Source of the DNA: Owenia fusiformis
Lineage: Eukaryota > Annelida > Polychaeta > Sabellida > Oweniidae
Direction: 5' to 3'
DNA: 64,000 bases
NCBI GenBank assembly: GCA_903813345.2
Contig: CAIIXF020000010.1
Span: 13,089,181 to 13,153,180 of the forward strand
The notes below the pieces were generated by a model that worked only from the letters and a program-made list of their open reading frames with translations, had not been told where the DNA came from and made no database searches. The position numbers were made by a program, and so were the translations under genes. This document shows, in pieces, positions 41,651 through 53,800 of this stretch; positions within the stretch are counted from its first letter, which is position 1; each line of letters opens with the position of its first letter.

Positions 41651-41807
41651 TTACTCTATAGAATTCGATTCATCATCGGCTTCTATCCCCGATTCTGCCA
41701 GTGACAGAGACCCTATGCCGATGTCCCCTGCGATAAATTGCCTGAGGTAATTCGTAATTTCTTTATGTCCAAAGCGCTTGGCGTCATCCATCGGCGTAAA
41801 GTCCCAT
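41651..41807 (-). CDS. GLS: Glutaminase alternative terminal exon, distal
   Basis: Acceptor TTCCAG, same phase as the proximal exon. Codes for 51 residues starting [17 protein letters not shown], then a Ser/Glu/Asp-rich tail ending NSIE. It completes the last ankyrin helix (human counterpart begins WNNTPMDEA). A possible poly(A) signal ATTAAA lies at 41610-41615 (minus strand). Confidence 0.82.
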
Positions 41808-44800
41808 CTGGAAGTACACGAGGCGAAGTGTGAAACTATATGATCTTTTTGTTGTCCAGTATATTAACAATGATTGTTTTTATTTAAGGTTAAGAAGAAT
41901 CGATGGTGATACATACATGTACACCATATTAATCCAAAACACGCACAACGTATCACACTTTATTCTGACAGGACCACAGATTGAACAAGATCTTTTAGAG
42001 ATGTCTTGTTTTCAGAACGTTCATTCTGCCCGGGTTTGTATTTCCAGAAGTACTCCTCGACTTCACTTTGTTGAAATTTCTTAGCGTCGTCCGATGGAGT
42101 AAAGCCCCACCTATGTATAAATATGGAGCCTTCTCCAGTCCAAGTATGGCAACTATTTATATAACGATCGCGTGTTTTCATTTCATAATATTATTCCAAA
42201 TAATCTTCAAGCCAAAGTGTGTTAAATTTAAGAAAGGATATTGAGAGGTGCAGTATCATTCTCAGGAGATGATCCGGGCTACTTTTGATTTTAGTGAAGT
42301 TATTTTCAAAGAACGTTAGATTCAAACCAAAACGTTAGATAAAAATTATAAAAGACAACTCACCTACTAACTAACATTAATGAAAAATATAGGCAAATAA
42401 AGCACCATACCTGTCTTTTGGGTCAACTGGGACTTTACATTTTTCTAGAAGAAACTGGACAACATTTAGCCTCCCCTCTGCTGCCGCAAGATGCAACGCC
42501 GTACGACCATCATAGTCTCCTTCAGTAAGGTCCATTCCAGAAAGTGCAAATCTAAAACACATTTACATCCATTAAAAGACAGGAATAAAACCCAACAATG
42601 ACCATTCCGTATGAAAATAGGACAAATCAAAAGCTAATGCGGTTAACCTGCATTGTTCTGATGGTAATTAACATTTATCTACCTCCTCACGGCAGATAGG
42701 TCTCCATTTGAGGCAGCAAAAAGCAAGGCAACAATGGAATTGGCCGAGACATCTCCTTTCCTCACTCGGGGGTCCATCTTCTTGGTAGTGTGCTTCAGGT
42801 TGTCATAGTTATGGAAGCTAAACTTGTCAATCAGTTCCTGCATAGGACAAAAAATATGCCAATAACGGGACTGAAAACAATTTCACTACAGGGAATATAG
42901 GTCAACAGAAAGATTGTACTACTCTGTTCTAGTCGCTTGTCTATAAAGAGAAAACATACACCAAACAGAACACCGAACACTACCGCCATCTTTAAGTCGA
43001 TCCAGTATCTATCAAAGACAACACATTGCTGACAACTAATGGGTAGTTCAAACTTTTGTGTTCTGTTCCGTCATGCATTCCGGACAAGAACATTGACATT
43101 ATTTTTCGTAAAATAAATCAAAAGACCTAATACATCTTCAGTAGATGCTGAAAACATATGAAAATATAATCATGTCACTGTATCGTGCCATATAAAATTA
43201 AAGGAATGTACGTTTTAGAGTATGATGCACTGGCTCCGTTTTACTCCTAGCATGAAGGTTACCAGCAAATGAACGACTATATTACTCACCTCACAAAACT
43301 GGATCCCTCTGTTGCTGTTGCCGTGCTTGTCCAGGGGAGGAGACCAGGTACAAATGCCCATTAGGTTAGGAATAACCAATAGGACTGCCCCAGCTACTCC
43401 CGATTTTGCTGGTAAGCCGACCTGTAAGAGAACGAACCACATACTGTATAGCTACATATAATTACTTCTTTGAATCGTCATTCTGTTTCTTGTATTATTA
43501 TAGGCTGAAATGTATTTAAGGTTTGTGCATAAAGTTGTTCACATAGGGAAGATATACTCTGCGAAGTTGAAAGATCTTAGTTGACTTAATTAAGAGATAC
43601 ATGTGTCTATAGGCTACCCTATACTGTATAGTATATTTTCTAAAAGAATATGCATGGGAAAGACTTTATTGGCAGATTGGTTGCGATTCTACAAAGGTAG
43701 GCCTATATGTATATTATAAACTTAAATCTAATAGTGTCGTGATTATACTTACGTGGAAGGCAAATTGACCAGAATAGTCATACATTCCACATGAATACAT
43801 AAGCGAAAGTGTGTTCCTGACAGCGTCTCCTGAGAGGACTTTTTCTCCTGTAATGGGACAAATCCCCCCGTTGGCTAAAGTGGCCGCTATAACAGCTCCA
43901 GACTCCGCTGTTATCTCGATTGAACACAGCTGTAATGAAGAGGCGTCTTACAAACAGATCTCTCAAAATAATCAAGTAAGGGGGAAGTTTTGAAATTGAT
44001 GCCAATAAAAATGAAAATCATAAAAAAGTAAAATAAAATGTTTAGTAATCATGCTTGATCAGCTTGATAATAATCATTAAGCATCTTGATTTCCCTAAGA
44101 TTTAACAGGCAGCTTTAGTGCGTGGAAATATATTAAGGTAAAATCATGGACAAATATTCGCGAATCGCGTTCTCTTCACGAAAAAAAAACGGTTTGACTG
44201 GAACTAAATATTTGTGCAAACTGTGAAAATCGTGTTATGATGATTACCTTATCCAAATTTAAGATTTTTTCTAATTCTGCACTACCCTCAACTTTTCGAT
44301 TACACTAATTCGATTTATATTCCGTTGTTATGTGGCTGCTAGGCAAAATCATTGTCAAAAAGTATGTTGTAACAATACCAAGTCAAGCCTCTAACTATTT
44401 TCTTACTAAACCACCGATTTCTATTTTATATCTTCAAATACGAAACAAGTTGAAATTGAAATTGTTGATCATTCAATTATGCGTTCCATTGATTTCAATG
44501 GGTTTTCGCAATACTCGCTAACTCGACATTTTAGTTCAAGAAAAGCTTTTACATTGATTTTAATCTGCTTAAAAGATAATAGATGATTCTTTTAGGAAAT
44601 ATAGCATTTTTGGCGCCAAAAATAATTTCGATAAGAAAATGAACAATTTTTCACAAAATGTCAAAAATGTTCACCCCTATATCACGTTCACCTCGATTTG
44701 ACCTTTGGTACCCTACTTCTTCTGAAAAACAACACTTTTCTGCAGAGTTAATTGAATTTTACAACAATACTAATATTATTAGTACAAATGTTCCATTCCC

Positions 44801-47800
44801 TTGCGATTCAGTGTTATAAAAAAGGTTGAAAACATTAAAGGCAATGGTGAGTTAGAGAGACGAATTGGGTTGAAAGTAATTACCGCTCTAGAAATTAGCT
44901 CAGATTTCATGTCCAGGCTATTTTCTAAAAGGTCAATCGTTTTGACATCTTAATAATAATGCATTTATTTCTTTAATTTTATATTAAATCCATCATTCAG
45001 ATATGATAAAAAAGGTAACTTCTTTTTGAATATTGCTTGAAGTATTTTTTGGAATGATTAAATAGTTAATAGAGAGGTTGGGTTAAGCGTTTGAGGGAAC
45101 ATGATAATATAAAGACACCCATCTATGTATATTAAGACAACCAGGAATTGAAGTCCCACTATCAATTGTTTTAAACCACATTTGCTCTGATTCATCGACC
45201 GGGCGCCGGCCGATGAATCAGAGGCAATGTGACTTGGGCTTAAGTAACATTATTTAATTAGCATTAAACATGTTAAACATGATTTCTTCATTTAACAATT
45301 AGAATCTGTAAATATCTAATATATAACCTTTGGAAATGTTATTAATGAACTGTCACCAAACAGAAGAGTATTCAAAACTTTGTTATCATGTCAATTATGA
45401 ATTGAAATAATAGGATTATTTAGTAAGAAAATTATTACAGAGAGATTTCGCAACTCAGTTATAGTATATGTATTATTCCCGTATAGCATATAACAAGAGG
45501 GATTAACTCCAGAGTTCAAATATGACATACGCTTATAATGTAAACCTGTATTGAGATGACACCTCTGATTGGTCCAAATCGATAAACAAAAATGGCGGAT
45601 TCAAAATTTTCTAGCAACGCTTCGGATAATGATAACGTTGATTCCTGGCACAGCTTGGTTTTTCACATCAAGATAAAGAAATATGTAAGGAATATGCTTA
45701 CATCGATTAAAACATTACGACAACGCGTTATATTCGAAAATTAACTGGTGAGAATTTGCACAAACGAAGGTGGTACGCAAGAGACGTAATACTTCGGTCA
45801 GTCAAAAAGTTCTGTTTATTTATCTCTAACTATGTCATTTTGAGGATTTACTTCTTGATATTTGGTACATCTATAGAACATATATTTGTGCAACTATTGG
45901 CTAAATATTGTATCTCAACTATGATTGGTTATTGAATTATGGTTGCTATGGTAACAGAATTGCGGGGTACACGGTTCAGCTAAAAAACGTCATATTTTTA
46001 ATGTCACATTAATTTCATTTGGCATCAATTAATTGAACAGATTTTCATGTTAAAATATCAGATTTTGCAAATTGACAGTTTTTGATGCCAATTCTATTGT
46101 CTTGAAGACATCACAGTCAAGGAAATATTCAATTGTGACAATTTTCAGCTGACATAGATGATTTTTTGGATGAAAAGATGAAAAAGTGAAAAGGGGATTT
46201 TGAGAAAAAATCATGTCAAATATTGATTCTCCTAGCAAGTTGTTAAAGTGGAAGCAAAGAAACTTGATACAGTATATGGTAGAAAACAGGAAAACACTAC
46301 AAGAGACATATCCACTTGTTAAAGGTGATTTTGGACAGGATGCTCCAAGACATAATACTGTCCGTAGATGGTACAATGACTTCTTGTCTGGAAAAGGGAT
46401 AAACTGTCTGATTCAGCACGGACTGGCTGGCCCAAGAGTTCTGTGAATGAGGACAATGCTGAGAAAATACAAGAGTTGATTGAGCAAGATAGGCACATTT
46501 CACTGGATGAGATTAGTTCCATTCTGAATATTTCTCATGACTCTTGCCATACAATCATCGCTAAAGTATTGAAAAAGTGTTATGTAGCCTCAAAATGGGT
46601 TCCTAGATTCCCCACTCAGGAACAGAAGCAATAAAGAATTGATGTCTTGAGGCAGTTTCTTGACGAATATGGACAATGCTCATCCCCTTACAAGTAATGT
46701 TGCCAAGACTGCCTTAGAAGACCTCCAATGGAGCAGGATTCCACAAGCACCATACTCCCCATACACATCTCCATGTGACTTTTACCTCTTCAGCAATCTA
46801 ATGAGGGGTCTTCGGGGGATCCGGTTTGATTCCGATGAGGCTCTGCGGGCAGCCGTGCGCAAACGTTTAAATGAATTGTCGGCTGGTGGTTAAAGGTGTC
46901 TTCAGAGACTGGGTAGAAAGGCACAGAAAGGTCATTGCTGCAGGAGGCGACTATTTTGAAGGCTAAATAACTCAATTAAACTTAGATATGACATCCGGGA
47001 CTTAGATAAAAAGGAGTTTTTAAATATTGAGACAGTTTAAAGTATATTTCATGTAATATAACAGTGTATGAAAATCAATAAAATTGGGTTGAACCGAGTA
47101 CATCGCCCTTCTGTTACCATAGCAACCATTATTCAGTAACCAATGATGGTTGAGATACAATGTTTAGTCAATATTAGCACAAATGTATGTTCTATAGATG
47201 TACCAAATATCAAGAAATAATACCTCAAAATGACAAAGTTAGAGATAAATAAACAGAACTTTTTGACTGACCTAAGTATGTCAGTCATCGCAAGAGCTCT
47301 GGGGGTTTCGCCCTCTTGCATATACATGTATCTTGTGAAGCGTTTGATTACGTCATCATTTAATGCGTGCGTAGCTCCATACGTCCGTATGGGTATAGAT
47401 GACGATTTATAAGAATACATTGGATTCCCGTATATTATAAGTGAGTTGAGAAATCTCTCTAGTGGCCCTTCTTTACGAGTTTGGGCCTGACATACCATGA
47501 AATAAAGTTCTAAAGTTTCCACCAGATCCAAACCTTCAGGAAAACAACCATGTTCCTTCATGTAATAGCCTACATGTAGGGCAAAGTTCCTGTCAGCTGT
47601 CGCCCTCTCACTAAGGTAGGTCGAATTGCTGAATCCAGTGTACCCCCGCCCGCAAGAAGGCTGTACATTGATTGTGTTTAGATGAAAAAAGAAAAGTGCA
47701 CAATGAGTTAGGAGTGGGGATTGCTTGTGCGTACCGAGTGCGACTCACCATGAAGTAAAACTCAAGGGTTTCTACCATGTCTTCGCCTTCAGGAAAACAT

Positions 47801-50800
47801 TTATGTTCTTGCATGTAATATCCCAGAGCAAAGTTCCTGTCTGCCGTTGCTCTTTCTGATAAATAAGTTGAGTTGCTAAAACCAATATTTTCACCACCTG
47901 CTAAACGTTTGAAACTTTCCTGAGCCTGCAATCAAATCAAACACGTGTTTTCATATTTTAAAGACTCCAATCAGAGGCAGTTTGAAATGAAAATATTTTT
48001 TATTTATCCAAATAATATGTGTTATGACTTAAAAGGTTAAAGATCATTTATGAAAAGCAGGAAAATCAGCAAACACTTTGTAGTCAAAAATTCTAAAACT
48101 AGACTCTGAAAAGTTGAGCAGGCATTTGACATATCACATTTTGATTACTAGTACATTGTGCAACACTACGATATTAGCCAAAATGGTTTTCATCGGGCCT
48201 TTAATTGTATACATCTTTATTTGGTTTCATGTGTCAGTGTCAAAAGAAAATACATTATAGAATATCTTCTTTTCTTTTTTCCTTACAATATTAAAAAAAA
48301 ATGTGAGGTATAAAAATATTTTTTAACCTCGATTTCTTCGATGTATGTTCTAAACTGAACTTACATATTCGAATCTTTCTGATATCGGATGTTTTCTTTT
48401 TAATAGTCCAGCTGTAATTATAGCGCCTGCATTTATAAGAGGATTGTGTGGTTTATCTAAAACACAATACGGCAATGTTGGTTCAAGAAAAAACATCAAA
48501 TCACAAATTCAAAAAGTGGTGGAGCGATTGCTGGGAACTCAATTAATACTTTAAAATGACTATAGTTTTTGAGTTACGAAATACATAAAATTATATAGTA
48601 TAAAATATCATGTAGTGTTCAAGGTTGGAAAATTCCCAATTTATTCATTCATTTGCTATAATCAATATTTTTCGATAGACGCCAGTCCTTGAAAGCAACT
48701 TACTGCGACTATCTAATGTCAATTCATTGAAGCTACGGCCGCTTGGCTCCTGGCCGACATATTTGTGAGTTTCGTCTACTCCTATCTCACTCATAGCAAG
48801 TGCGTATGTGAGAGGTTTACTGCAAGACTGGATACTGAATGGTTTCGTTGTATCACCGATTGAATGTCTGAAATAAAGTACCATTACATTGACAATTATA
48901 CTTTATGAAAATAATGCATTAATACAGGGATAAAATGAGGTTATAACTATGCTATCGTCTGGACAGCAGGGAATACAGCATGTTTCTTAGGATACACCAT
49001 TTTAGAATAACTTCTTAAGTTACAACTTCAGTCCAAAATTGTTTGACTGGAGGTCAAAACAGAACTCTGTTATCTTTGTTCAAAAAATGTCTAAAAATGC
49101 AAAAAATGTCATTTCCTGTTTTGTCATTTCCTGTTAACTTCCATAGCACCTTAAGTAATTGTACATATACCTAATCTTTAGAGATAAAGACAGCATTTGT
49201 GAAATGAATCAAGAACTAACTTACCTAACTACTCATCAGAATTTAATTCTAGAATAGATAAAAGAGGGGGTGGTGTCTGTATAAATGTTCACAACTCCTT
49301 GCAGTATATTACACGCAATGACCTTAGGGTTGATAATCTAGAGTGTGAATCAGTAGCTATTGAATTAATCAGTCAAAACTCAAAAAATATCATTATTACT
49401 GTCATATATAAGCCACTTGGTGTTGATGTGTCACATTTTAATAGTGACTTGGGTGATTATATGAATAAAATAGCAGATGAGGGTAAATTATCTTACATCA
49501 TGGGTGACTTCAACATTGATTTACTTAAGGTTGAATCTCATGAACCCACACATGATTTTCTGAACCAGTTTTATTCATTCAACCATGTCCCACTAATATA
49601 TAGGCCGACAAGAATTACTGACAAGACTGCAACTCTTATAGATAATATTTTTACTAATGTCCCTAATATTGATGGATGTGGTATCATCATGGAGGACATT
49701 TCTGATCACTTTCCAATCTATTCCATTTCACATTATGATACTACCAAACCTAAAAAAACATTGAGCAGTTATCGTAATTTCAATGACTCTAATAAGCAAT
49801 TATTTCTTGAGAAACTCTCAAATGTCGACTGGACCCGTTGCTATAAAAGTCAAGATGTAAACATAGCATTTAATATCTTCATTAACTTGTTAATGGAGCA
49901 ATACGATTCTTCATTTCCACTCAAATCCAAATTTATCAAAGTTAATCATGATCCTAATAGACCCTGGTTGACTTCTGGCATCTTAACTTCTGCCAAAACT
50001 AAAAATAAGCTATATACCAAATATTTGAAAAATCCCTGTTGCAAAACAGGAAAAGCTTACAAGTCCTTCAACCATAAACTTAAGCACATAATTAAATACT
50101 CAAAACGTACACATTATCAAAATAAGTTTGCCGAAGTAAGTGGTAACATTAAAAAGTCTTGGTCTATCATTAATGAACTACTTGGAAAAAACAAAAAAGC
50201 TGCATTGCCATCTAAATTCACTATAAATGGAAAGGAAACAACAGATCATGAAATCATTTCCAATGGATTTAATAATTTTTTTACCAATATTGGTAAAACT
50301 CTAGCCAAGGAGATTCCAAAATCCAAAAAATGCTTTAATGAATACGTAGCAAGAGCTCAAAAAGTTCAATCATCTATTTATCTCAAAAAGACCTCAAAAA
50401 CTGAGCTTGAATTAGAAATGTGTCTTCTAAAATCTTCCTCGCCTGGACCTGATGGGATTCTACCATCACTTATTAAGTCTGCAAGACAGTTTTTAATTGA
50501 TCCACTCTTGTATATATTTAACTTATCTTTTAAATCTGGTATTTTCCCAGACGCCCTCAAATTGGCCAAAGTAACACCTGTATTTAAAAAAGGTGTCACT
50601 ACAAATCCTTCGAACTATAGACCAATTTCAGTTTTATCTGTATTTTCTAAATTGTTAGAAAAGCTCATGCATGCCAAACTCACTGGTTTTTTAGAACGTT
50701 TTGAAATTATTTTTACTTATCAATTTGGATTTCAGAAATTCAACTCTACCTACATGGCCATTTTATATTTCATTGAACAAATTCGAAAATCAACTGATTT

Positions 50801-53800
50801 GGGGAAAACGAGCATTGGCATAACATTGGATTTTTCCAAGGCCTTTGACACAATTAATCATGACATTTTGATACAAAAACTTGAATATTATGGCATCAGA
50901 GGAATAGCTAAGTCCTGGTTTGAAAGTTATTTAAAAGACCGCAAACAATATGTCACCATTAACAATTATGAATCTAAACAATCATCTCTAAATTGTGGTG
51001 TTCCGCAGGGCTCGGTACTTGGACCACTATTATTTATTCTTTACATAAATGATCTGCCTTTTGTTGCCCCTAATTTAAAATTTATTATGTTTGCTGATGA
51101 CACCAATCTTCTTGATAGTGATTATGATTTAAATGAACTTATGACTAGAACTAATGCAAACTTGAATTCAATAGATGGCTGGATAAAAGCAAACAAACTT
51201 TCACTTAATATTGGCAAAACCAATGCTATTCTATTTGGACCCCCCAAAAAATCAAACAAATCTGAATCTTAAAATACGCAATGAGAACATAAATTTCCGG
51301 GAAAAATTGACTTTCTTGGAATTATTATTGATAAAAACTTGAAATTTAAAGAGCACATAAAATCTGTTGAAACAAAGATTTCTCGCGTCATTGGTTCTCT
51401 TTATCACATTAAACATCTACTTCAAATAGACAGTTTCAAAACAATTTACTACTCATTGATACACTCTCAATTAAATTATTGCAACATAATCTGGGGTAAC
51501 ACATTTAAATCATTTTATGATCGTCTACATAAACTGCAGAAACAATTCTTAAGGCTAGCTTTAAATAAGGATAGACTTTCTCACTCCGCTCCCCTATTTA
51601 AAGATCTTAGAATATTAAATATTTTTGATATCAACAGATATTGTACTGGTCAGTTCATGTACAAAATCTTTAATAAGCACCCCAGTCTTCCAAAAAATCT
51701 ATTTCAAGACTTGTTTGATATCAACATTAATATTCATCATCATTACACAAGACAATTGCATTATTTTCATATCCCTAAATGCTCTAAACTTTCCCTTCGC
51801 TATCTGGGTCCTAATCTTTGGAATGCTCTACCACATGATATTAAAAAATGCTCCACTCTAAATATTTTCAAATCTTCATATAAAAAACTACTCATCTATC
51901 GATAATGTATAATACCAATATCATACTATACTGTTGATTTTATACTGGTACCCGATTTTTGTAACATTTTTACATTGTACATCCTTAGATTAATTGTTAA
52001 TACCATTTTTATATACCTACATGTAACATAATATAAGTGTTTTCTTTTATATGTAGTCTAGTTGTCATTTTAATGATTTCTGTTAAACCGCAACATATAC
52101 CCACTAGGGTGTCTAGCGGCTTGTTTTTATAGTGTATATTATATAAGAATTATGAAATAAATAATTGAATTATAAAAAATAATTGAATTATAACTAACAC
52201 CCCAGTCACATTTGTCGTACGGCGGCCGTACGTCGACCGCAGATCAATTAAATCAGTGTATTTCTGCGGCGAGCATAGGAAAACTATGCTCGCCTTGCGG
52301 CCTCCGTACGGCGTATCCAGTTTTTTACAGGCCGCATGGTCGCCGTAGAAATTATAACTCGGAGTTATAATATTTGTTCATTTCTGAGGTCCCCGTAGAA
52401 ATCAACTGGCTGAACAAGATTGAATCCTTATTTGTCAATGTTTCGAGATCACTTTTCATTTGATATTACATCCTAGCACTATGAATAACATTTATAAATT
52501 GTCCTGATGTAAATAAAATGAAAACAAGTATTATTTATCAACAGAAATGTAAAATTCACCTTGGGAAATGTGACTGCAAAAGTACAGAAATTCTACAGCG
52601 AGCGTAGAAAAGCTAATGGCCGCAGAAATGATAGACCGCACGGCGGCAGTGGGAAATGTGACTGAGGTGTTAGGAATCACAATTTCCAATTCAAATTCCT
52701 TTTTCGTGCATTACATCTGTATATTCCGTCGTGTATAATTCTATATTGTTGTTTACTTTTTTTATTCAATATAAAGTAACTTTAGTATTTGCCAAACGTA
52801 TTAACAGTTTATAGTTGGTAAATAACTTGCCTCTGTCCATCCACTGTGCACACTGAGACTCCCCATAGATTTGGATCCACTCTAGCCAGCTGTGGAATGT
52901 ACTGTGCTGGCTACATGAAATCAAAGAAAAAATCATGAATATGAATTACTTAAATAACTTTAAATGCATTCCAATCTTAAAGTTTTCATTGAAAAGTAAC
53001 GTCACGATTTTTTATATAACCTTTTTTTGTGGGGATACTTATAATTTAAAATGTTTGAACAAGTAATGCAGAGCGTCTCAACAAACAAACAACATGCGAA
53101 TAAGCAAACAACAGTACTCACAGTTCCTTGGGTGTTTTTCTGACACGAGTAGTATAGCGTGTCTATGTGACCCGTAAAATCCCAGAACTCCGGGATGATC
53201 ATTTCATTCTTGAAAGCCATACCAATCAACACAATATTGTCATGAGTACACCTAAAGAAATAAATAGTATATGTTTTACTCTATTACAGATTAATATTTA
53301 GGATTTCTCGCTTTAAGTACAATCAATGTGCAAATAATTAATAACGGTAGTTTAAGGAAGTATCAGCTCTAGCAGCACAATGACCATATTTTCATCATCA
53401 GGTTGTTAATTCGGGAACGTGGTAGATATTAGAAAGTTCCTTTGAACTTGAATATTCATCTATTGGTCAATTTTTATATTACCTATTTTGATATACAAAT
53501 GAAAGTAAAATAAAAGTCACAACAATAAAAGGAACTATATTTCTCTTATTGTGATTTTATAACATTGATCTCCCCGACCTAGAAATCACATTTTCAAATA
53601 AAATTTGATTTTTAAAGATGATAAACTGTTTTGAAACCTCATTTCAAAATATAATTTTATTTGCTGTTTTAATGAAGTTTTTAAAGATATATTATTTTGA
53701 TATTTTTCATAACATTTCGTAAATAATTTAAACAAGGCATAACCATGCAGAATGTCACCATGTACCATTTTTACAGATGCCCAAGACCAGACACCAGGTG

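What the first reader, a model, noticed from the sequence alone, without database searches (positions are those of the whole stretch)
47496..47925. Duplicated catalytic exon in a glutaminase gene, probably mutually exclusive
Two copies of the exon with the substrate-binding Glu and Asn lie 88 bp apart. Both are phase 0-0 with good splice sites and an open frame. Over a 20-residue block they code for the same peptide, while 15 of 20 codons differ silently, which is strong evidence that both were kept under protein-level selection. The second copy differs at its start and has a two-residue insertion next to the active-site helix, so isoforms could differ in kinetics or in filament or tetramer contacts. 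I know of no mutually exclusive exon at this place in mammalian GLS or GLS2.
Basis: partly seen in the sequence, partly recalled or inferred. Interest (0 to 1): 0.78.

Follow-up and report, generated by a model that had tools for sequence, protein, structure and literature searches.

The report
Old swappable exon pair in glutaminase
An invertebrate glutamine-splitting enzyme carries two old alternative copies of the exon that holds part of its active site, in each of three neighbouring genes; in the gene read here the second copy looks damaged, while its neighbours keep both copies intact.

Summary
The duplicated exon is real, at the stated coordinates. It also lies in both neighbouring glutaminase genes of the same cluster (G1 and G3), but was not found in the genome's three other glutaminase genes. 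In G1 and G3 both copies are intact 177-nt, phase 0-0 exons, separated by a 69-70 nt intron. Copies A and B are saturated at silent sites, and copy B evolved between G1 and G3 under strong purifying selection (dN/dS 0.06, like the rest of the gene). The pair therefore predates the cluster and both forms were kept. The short intron carries its only YTRAY branch-point motif 38-41 nt from the donor, below the roughly 50 nt steric limit, so mutually exclusive splicing is the likely mechanism. No RNA data were available.

In the window gene (G2), copy B is the damaged one. Against G1 and G3 it has lost the ancestral acceptor AG, lost one base and gained six bases between the conserved NFAL and GYY. 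The 'acceptor' at 47661 is former coding sequence. The frame survives only because the 17-nt shift and the 1-nt loss cancel. It is most likely a decaying exon; a remodelled one is possible. All three genes also carry two alternative last exons.

The parts
47749..47925 (-). Exon A: intact 177-nt phase 0-0 copy (human GLS 358-416, with E381, R387, N388, Y394)
47661..47748 (-). The last 17 nt match the start of exon B in G1 and G3; the ancestral acceptor reads AA instead of AG. The only YTRAY branch-point motif is 41 nt from the donor, and the AG at 88 is the first AG after it
47496..47660 (-). Exon B as drawn (165 nt): damaged or remodelled copy. 1-nt deletion near its start, 6-nt insertion between human positions 391 and 392, changes S48L and F56L (exon residue numbers), intact donor gtatgt
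48365..48456 (-). Exon d, upstream neighbour of the pair, donor gtaagt, phase 0 (5' edge set by eye)
43753..43929 (-). Exon e, downstream neighbour of the pair ([10 protein letters not shown]...)
53122..53251 (-). Exon a of the same gene (5' edge set by eye)
52831..52910 (-). Exon b, with a GC donor (AG|GCAAGT) in all three cluster genes (edge set by eye)
48704..48867 (-). Exon c, with an SCSK stretch (5' edge set by eye)
43290..43421 (-). Exon f
42683..42837 (-). Exon g
42411..42551 (-). Exon h (ankyrin repeat, named by eye; 5' edge set by eye)
41960..42110 (-). Alternative last exon i, own stop, AATAAA before i2 (5' edge set by eye)
41651..41807 (-). Alternative last exon i2, own stop (5' edge set by eye)

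Best explanation
The exon coding for human-GLS positions 358-416 was duplicated in tandem in an ancestral glutaminase gene, before that gene multiplied into a cluster of three (G1, the window gene G2, and G3, within about 90 kb). This residue range holds the substrate-binding Glu and Asn, six of seven named filament-contact residues of human GAC, and phosphate and inhibitor contacts. Both versions were kept by selection. They are most likely used one at a time: the intron between them is too short, and its branch point too near the donor, for A to be spliced directly to B, so each transcript takes A or B. In the window gene, B has since lost its original acceptor, lost one base and gained six. 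It is most likely a decaying exon, and this gene then makes mainly or only the A form while G1 and G3 can make both. Shown: the anatomy, the age order, the selection on B in G1 and G3, and the lesions. Inferred: mutually exclusive splicing, its steric mechanism, and the loss of function of copy B in G2.
For: The pair is in 3 of 3 cluster genes and was found in 0 of 3 other glutaminase genes, where this stretch is split by one or two introns instead. G1B versus G3B: 19 changes at 36.5 silent sites, 7 at 140.5 replacement sites, dN/dS 0.06, Fisher P 2e-10 on rounded counts; the rest of the gene gives 0.065 over 314 codons. A versus B within a gene: 30.7 of 35.5 (G1) and 33.1 of 35.3 (G3) silent sites changed, dN about 0.19. 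The B clade has support 100, 100 and 94 in nucleotide, codon and protein trees of nine sequences. The A-B intron is 69 and 70 nt; the 12 other introns of G1 and G3 that I tabulated are 130-5768 nt, and 27 myosin introns are estimated at 126 nt or more (raw gaps 94 or more). The single YTRAY motif lies 38 or 41 nt from the donor and 31 or 29 nt from the acceptor. A-B intron identity between G1 and G3 is 0.69, against 0.46-0.66 for 12 intron-end stretches elsewhere and 0.46 on average (0.57 at most) for 500 shuffles. G2 lesions, absent from G1 and G3: acceptor AG to AA, 1-nt deletion, 6-nt insertion. On the G3 branch exon B has two silent changes and no replacement, on the G2 branch three replaced residues.
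Against: No transcript data. The exon lengths are multiples of three, so joint inclusion would not break the frame. The branch point is a motif, not mapped; looser YTNAY motifs also occur in the A-B intron (at 23, 32, 42 nt in G1; 34, 65 nt in G3), and 3 of the 12 other introns have no YTRAY within 60 nt of the acceptor, so the motif is a weak predictor. The minimal spliceable intron of this species is unknown. G1A versus G3A dN/dS is 0.43 and only weakly below neutral (P 0.06), so A is less constrained than B. Substitutions alone do not single out B in G2: on the G2 branch exon A also has two replaced residues and two silent changes, and one of the three in B (L3S) lies in the part now upstream of the drawn acceptor. 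Copy B of G2 still has an open frame, an intact donor, and an AG that scanning from the branch-point motif would meet first. Two of three trees place G1A beside the B clade (codon 69, protein 72), so the A copies are not cleanly one clade.
Confidence: 0.57

Rival explanations
1. Copy B of the window gene is still used, in remodelled form. After the ancestral AG was lost, the spliceosome uses the next AG 17 nt downstream, and the 1-nt deletion restored the frame, giving an isoform with a shortened, altered start and two extra residues.
For: The AG at 47661 is the first AG after the branch-point motif. 17 + 1 = 18 nt keeps frame, the insertion is 6 nt, the frame is open and the donor intact. Replacement counts on the G2 branch are similar in exon A (2 residues) and exon B (3, two of them in the retained part), so they do not by themselves show relaxed selection on B.
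Against: Net frame retention has a chance near one in three. The insertion splits the conserved NFAL/GYY stretch, six residues are lost and about six altered before the conserved GFSN, and F56L hits the conserved FYF near the exon end; that these break the protein is inference.
Confidence: 0.28
2. The exons are not mutually exclusive: both can be included, giving an enzyme with a tandem 59-residue repeat, or B is a cassette exon.
For: Both exons are phase 0-0 and multiples of three, so inclusion of both keeps the frame.
Against: A second copy of the active-site and interface segment inside the domain would very probably not fold (inference). The 69-70 nt intron is shorter than the 39 other introns measured or estimated (12, 27).
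Confidence: 0.12
3. Assembly or polishing error makes copy B of G2 look damaged while the true allele is intact.
For: A single assembly was available; the 1-nt deletion is in a G run.
Against: Three different kinds of lesion (acceptor substitution, 1-nt deletion, 6-nt insertion) fall on one exon; the other exons of the gene listed are open in their reading frame.
Confidence: 0.07

Closest known systems
OGDH exons 4a/4b in vertebrates (PMC7969005, abstract and passages seen)
   Same: Tandem duplicated exons in an enzyme of the glutamine/2-oxoglutarate route (route recalled), kept mutually exclusive by human branch points 25-41 nt from the donor, which force the intervening intron to stay short
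   Different: Different gene and fold, other animal group; here the branch point is only a motif, about 30 nt from the acceptor, not a distant one
Alpha-tropomyosin exons 2/3 (recalled) and the 57 human MXE clusters with donor to branch point under 50 bp (PMC5740500, passages seen)
   Same: Steric interference between donor and branch point as the rule for A or B
   Different: Other genes; here an active-site exon of an enzyme
Mammalian GLS isoforms KGA and GAC (recalled)
   Same: Alternative 3' exons of glutaminase; the cluster genes also have two alternative last exons
   Different: KGA/GAC differ in the C-terminus only (recalled); no swap of the catalytic exon was seen in the searches or in text searches of three papers
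Human GAC/GLS2 filaments (PMC10912226, passages seen)
   Same: The exon spans human 358-416, which holds F373, N375, F378, Q379, D412, Q416 (filament contacts) and R387, Y394, E397, K398 (phosphate and dimer-dimer contacts)
   Different: In this cluster L stands for Q379 and M for Q416 in both copies; whether the enzyme forms filaments is unknown

Membership tests
Glutaminase (Pfam PF04960) | Match to the family profile over the curated cut-off | tested here: met
   24 matches in six genes, the window gene among them, marked over the cut-off, one of them only with its neighbours
Glutaminase (Pfam PF04960) | Substrate-binding Glu381 and Asn388 present | tested here: met
   Both in copies A and B by alignment to human GLS chains; roles recalled
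Tandem duplicated mutually exclusive exons | Adjacent homologous exons with same phase and compatible frame | tested here: met
   177/177 nt, phase 0-0 in G1 and G3; 177/165 in the window gene
Tandem duplicated mutually exclusive exons | Both forms under protein-level selection | tested here: met
   G1B-G3B dN/dS 0.06, P 2e-10; G1A-G3A 0.43, P 0.06; A-B contrasts P 1.1e-14 or less. For the window gene's own B the lesions suggest relaxed selection
Tandem duplicated mutually exclusive exons | Exactly one of the two in each mRNA | not testable with these tools
   No RNA reads available
Steric-hindrance type of mutually exclusive splicing | Branch point under about 50 nt from the upstream donor | tested here: inconclusive
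   Only YTRAY motif at 38 and 41 nt, but the branch point is not mapped and the motif is absent in 3 of 12 other introns
OGDH-type distant branch point | Branch point far from the acceptor, near the donor | tested here: not met
   Motif lies 29-31 nt from the acceptor in G1 and G3, an ordinary distance ('ordinary' is recalled)

The most novel reading that the evidence does not exclude
A cluster of three glutaminase genes keeps two exchangeable versions of the segment that forms the active site, the phosphate/inhibitor pocket and the filament surface, plus two exchangeable C-termini. Splicing would then tune phosphate activation or filament assembly tissue by tissue, and the window gene's copy B would be a third, remodelled version in use.
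Probability: 0.18. Interest if true: 0.7.

Novelty: new member of a known kind. Interest (0 to 1): 0.5.

Why it matters
Well-known mutually exclusive exons in metabolic enzymes are few (OGDH; PKM recalled). Here the swapped segment is the one that in human GLS couples catalysis, phosphate activation and filament growth, so two natural versions kept for a long time would be a ready-made test of which residues set those properties (consistent differences, with G1B and G3B as B, at human 358, 360, 363, 371, 399, 405). The three paralogues also show the fate of such a pair after gene duplication: kept in two genes, apparently decaying in the third.

Tried and rejected
Rejected: that the two-residue insertion is a designed isoform feature. 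G1 and G3 lack it. Rejected: chance similarity and a recent exon copy (silent sites saturated). Further copies of this exon: the search with G3 copy B gave nine places, all in the six genes, at E up to 10 (the tool scores only its best candidates). No match joining several exons of a cluster gene, which could record a splice choice, appeared; I ran no search made for that. Literature: ten searches. One search found 22 papers with both 'glutaminase' and 'mutually exclusive exon' (20 listed) and two; apart from passages of PMC7969005 these were judged from the listing only. No paper on a duplicated or mutually exclusive catalytic exon of glutaminase was seen, in an open-access library that lacks most subscription journals. 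Text searches of PMC9741552, PMC5740500 and PMC9013439 for glutaminase or GLS gave 0 occurrences.

Full report
What is there. The window lies on contig C10 (13089181-13153180) of a 498 Mb genome. The gene is a glutaminase on the minus strand, with the exons that I could place, a to i2, between 53251 and 41651; exons upstream of a were not sought.

The same pair elsewhere. The genome search shows six glutaminase genes. Two lie beside this one: G1 (locus L005, plus strand) and G3 (L006, minus strand), all three within C10:13.080-13.168 Mb. In both, copies A and B are intact 177-nt exons separated by 69 and 70 nt. The three other genes (L007, L008, L009) show one copy, broken by an intron after NAT, and in L009 by a second. 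A whole-genome search with the G3 copy B found nine places, all in these six genes (the tool scores only its best candidates).

Age and selection. Between A and B of one gene, silent sites are saturated (30.7 of 35.5 in G1, 33.1 of 35.3 in G3) while dN is about 0.19; between G1 and G3 the rest of the gene has dS 0.54. Copy B forms one clade in all three trees, with support 100, 100 and 94, so the exon duplication is older than the cluster. Copy B has dN/dS 0.06 between G1 and G3, like the rest of the gene (0.065). Copy A is looser (0.43; P 0.06), and in the codon and protein trees G1A sits by the B clade (69 and 72) while the nucleotide tree joins the A copies (64); gene conversion is possible, and I did not resolve this. 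Residues that differ consistently between A and B (G1B and G3B) are at human 358, 360, 363, 371, 399 (K to G) and 405.

Damage in the window gene. Aligned with G1 and G3, copy B of G2 reads AA where the ancestral acceptor AG was, lacks one base near its start and has six extra bases between human 391 and 392. Polarised with G1, the G2 branch has three replaced residues in B (L3S, S48L, F56L; the first lies upstream of the drawn acceptor) and the G3 branch two silent changes and no replacement. Exon A has two replaced residues and two silent changes on the G2 branch and one replaced residue (two bases) on the G3 branch. Exons a to g without A and B have 4 replacement and 8 silent changes (G2) against 2 and 7 (G3), one unpolarised. 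So the substitutions alone are a weak sign, and the case for decay rests on the three lesions. The 17-nt shift and the 1-nt loss cancel in frame, and the new AG is the first after the branch-point motif, so a rescued exon cannot be excluded. I judge decay about twice as likely.

How it probably works. The intron between the copies is 69-70 nt, against 130-5768 nt for the 12 other introns of G1 and G3 that I tabulated (b-c, g-h and h-i were not) and an estimated 126 nt or more for 27 myosin introns (raw gaps 94 or more), from 49 of 92 match rows. Its only YTRAY motif stands 38 (G1) or 41 (G3, G2) nt from the donor; looser YTNAY motifs stand at 23, 32 and 42 nt in G1 and at 34 and 65 nt in G3. 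In 3 of the 12 other introns there is no YTRAY within 60 nt of the acceptor, so the motif is a weak guide. A threshold near 50 nt is cited in PMC7969005 and used in PMC5740500, which counts 57 human clusters under it (passages). If A cannot be spliced to B, each transcript takes one of them. The A-B intron is also more alike between G1 and G3 (0.69) than any of 12 other intron-end stretches (0.46-0.66; shuffles 0.46 on average, 0.57 at most), although its short length means that both splice sites are included.

What the swap could change. By alignment to human GLS (residues 362-415; extended by four residues before and one after) the exon spans 358-416. PMC10912226 (passages) places filament contacts at F355, F373, F378, D412, Q416, N375 and Q379, and phosphate or dimer-dimer contacts at R387, E397, Y394 and K398; PMC5295402 (passages) names Y394 among the inhibitor contacts. 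All of these but F355 are within this exon. A and B do not differ consistently at these sites, but do at 399, next to K398. Functional difference is therefore inference.

A second duplicated exon. All three cluster genes also have two alternative last exons, i and i2, each with an acceptor and its own stop, with a poly(A)-signal-like hexamer between them. The other genes match once each. Between G1 and G3, i has dS 0.35 and dN 0.18, i2 dS 0.95 and dN 0.15; the first is only weak evidence of constraint.

Verdict. This is a new member of a known kind.

Noticed in passing
window 41651-42110 (- strand); L010, L011: Two alternative last exons (i, i2), each with its own stop, in all three cluster glutaminase genes; a second set of duplicated exons in the same genes.
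   Followed up: partly
G000 contig C9:37986009-37994334: Twelve tandem matches to the same stretch (about positions 18-84) of the myosin head family: probably a large array of alternative N-terminal exons of a myosin heavy chain.
   Followed up: no
L005 5474-5882: Six partial copies of the start of exon h ([10 protein letters not shown] or close to it), 75-76 bp apart, in the intron before exon h of G1.
   Followed up: no
window 49203-51905 (+ strand): Long open frames of a non-LTR retrotransposon (endonuclease and reverse transcriptase by eye) inside the intron between exons b and c.
   Followed up: no
window 46204-46893 (+ strand), flanks 45711-45935 and 47133-47412: Mariner-like transposase fragments (by eye) in the intron after exon B, with flanking stretches that code for similar peptides on opposite strands, so probably an inverted repeat.
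   Followed up: no
window 52831 (- strand) and the same site in G1, G3: A GC-type donor (AG|GCAAGT) ends exon b in all three cluster genes (read by eye).
   Followed up: partly
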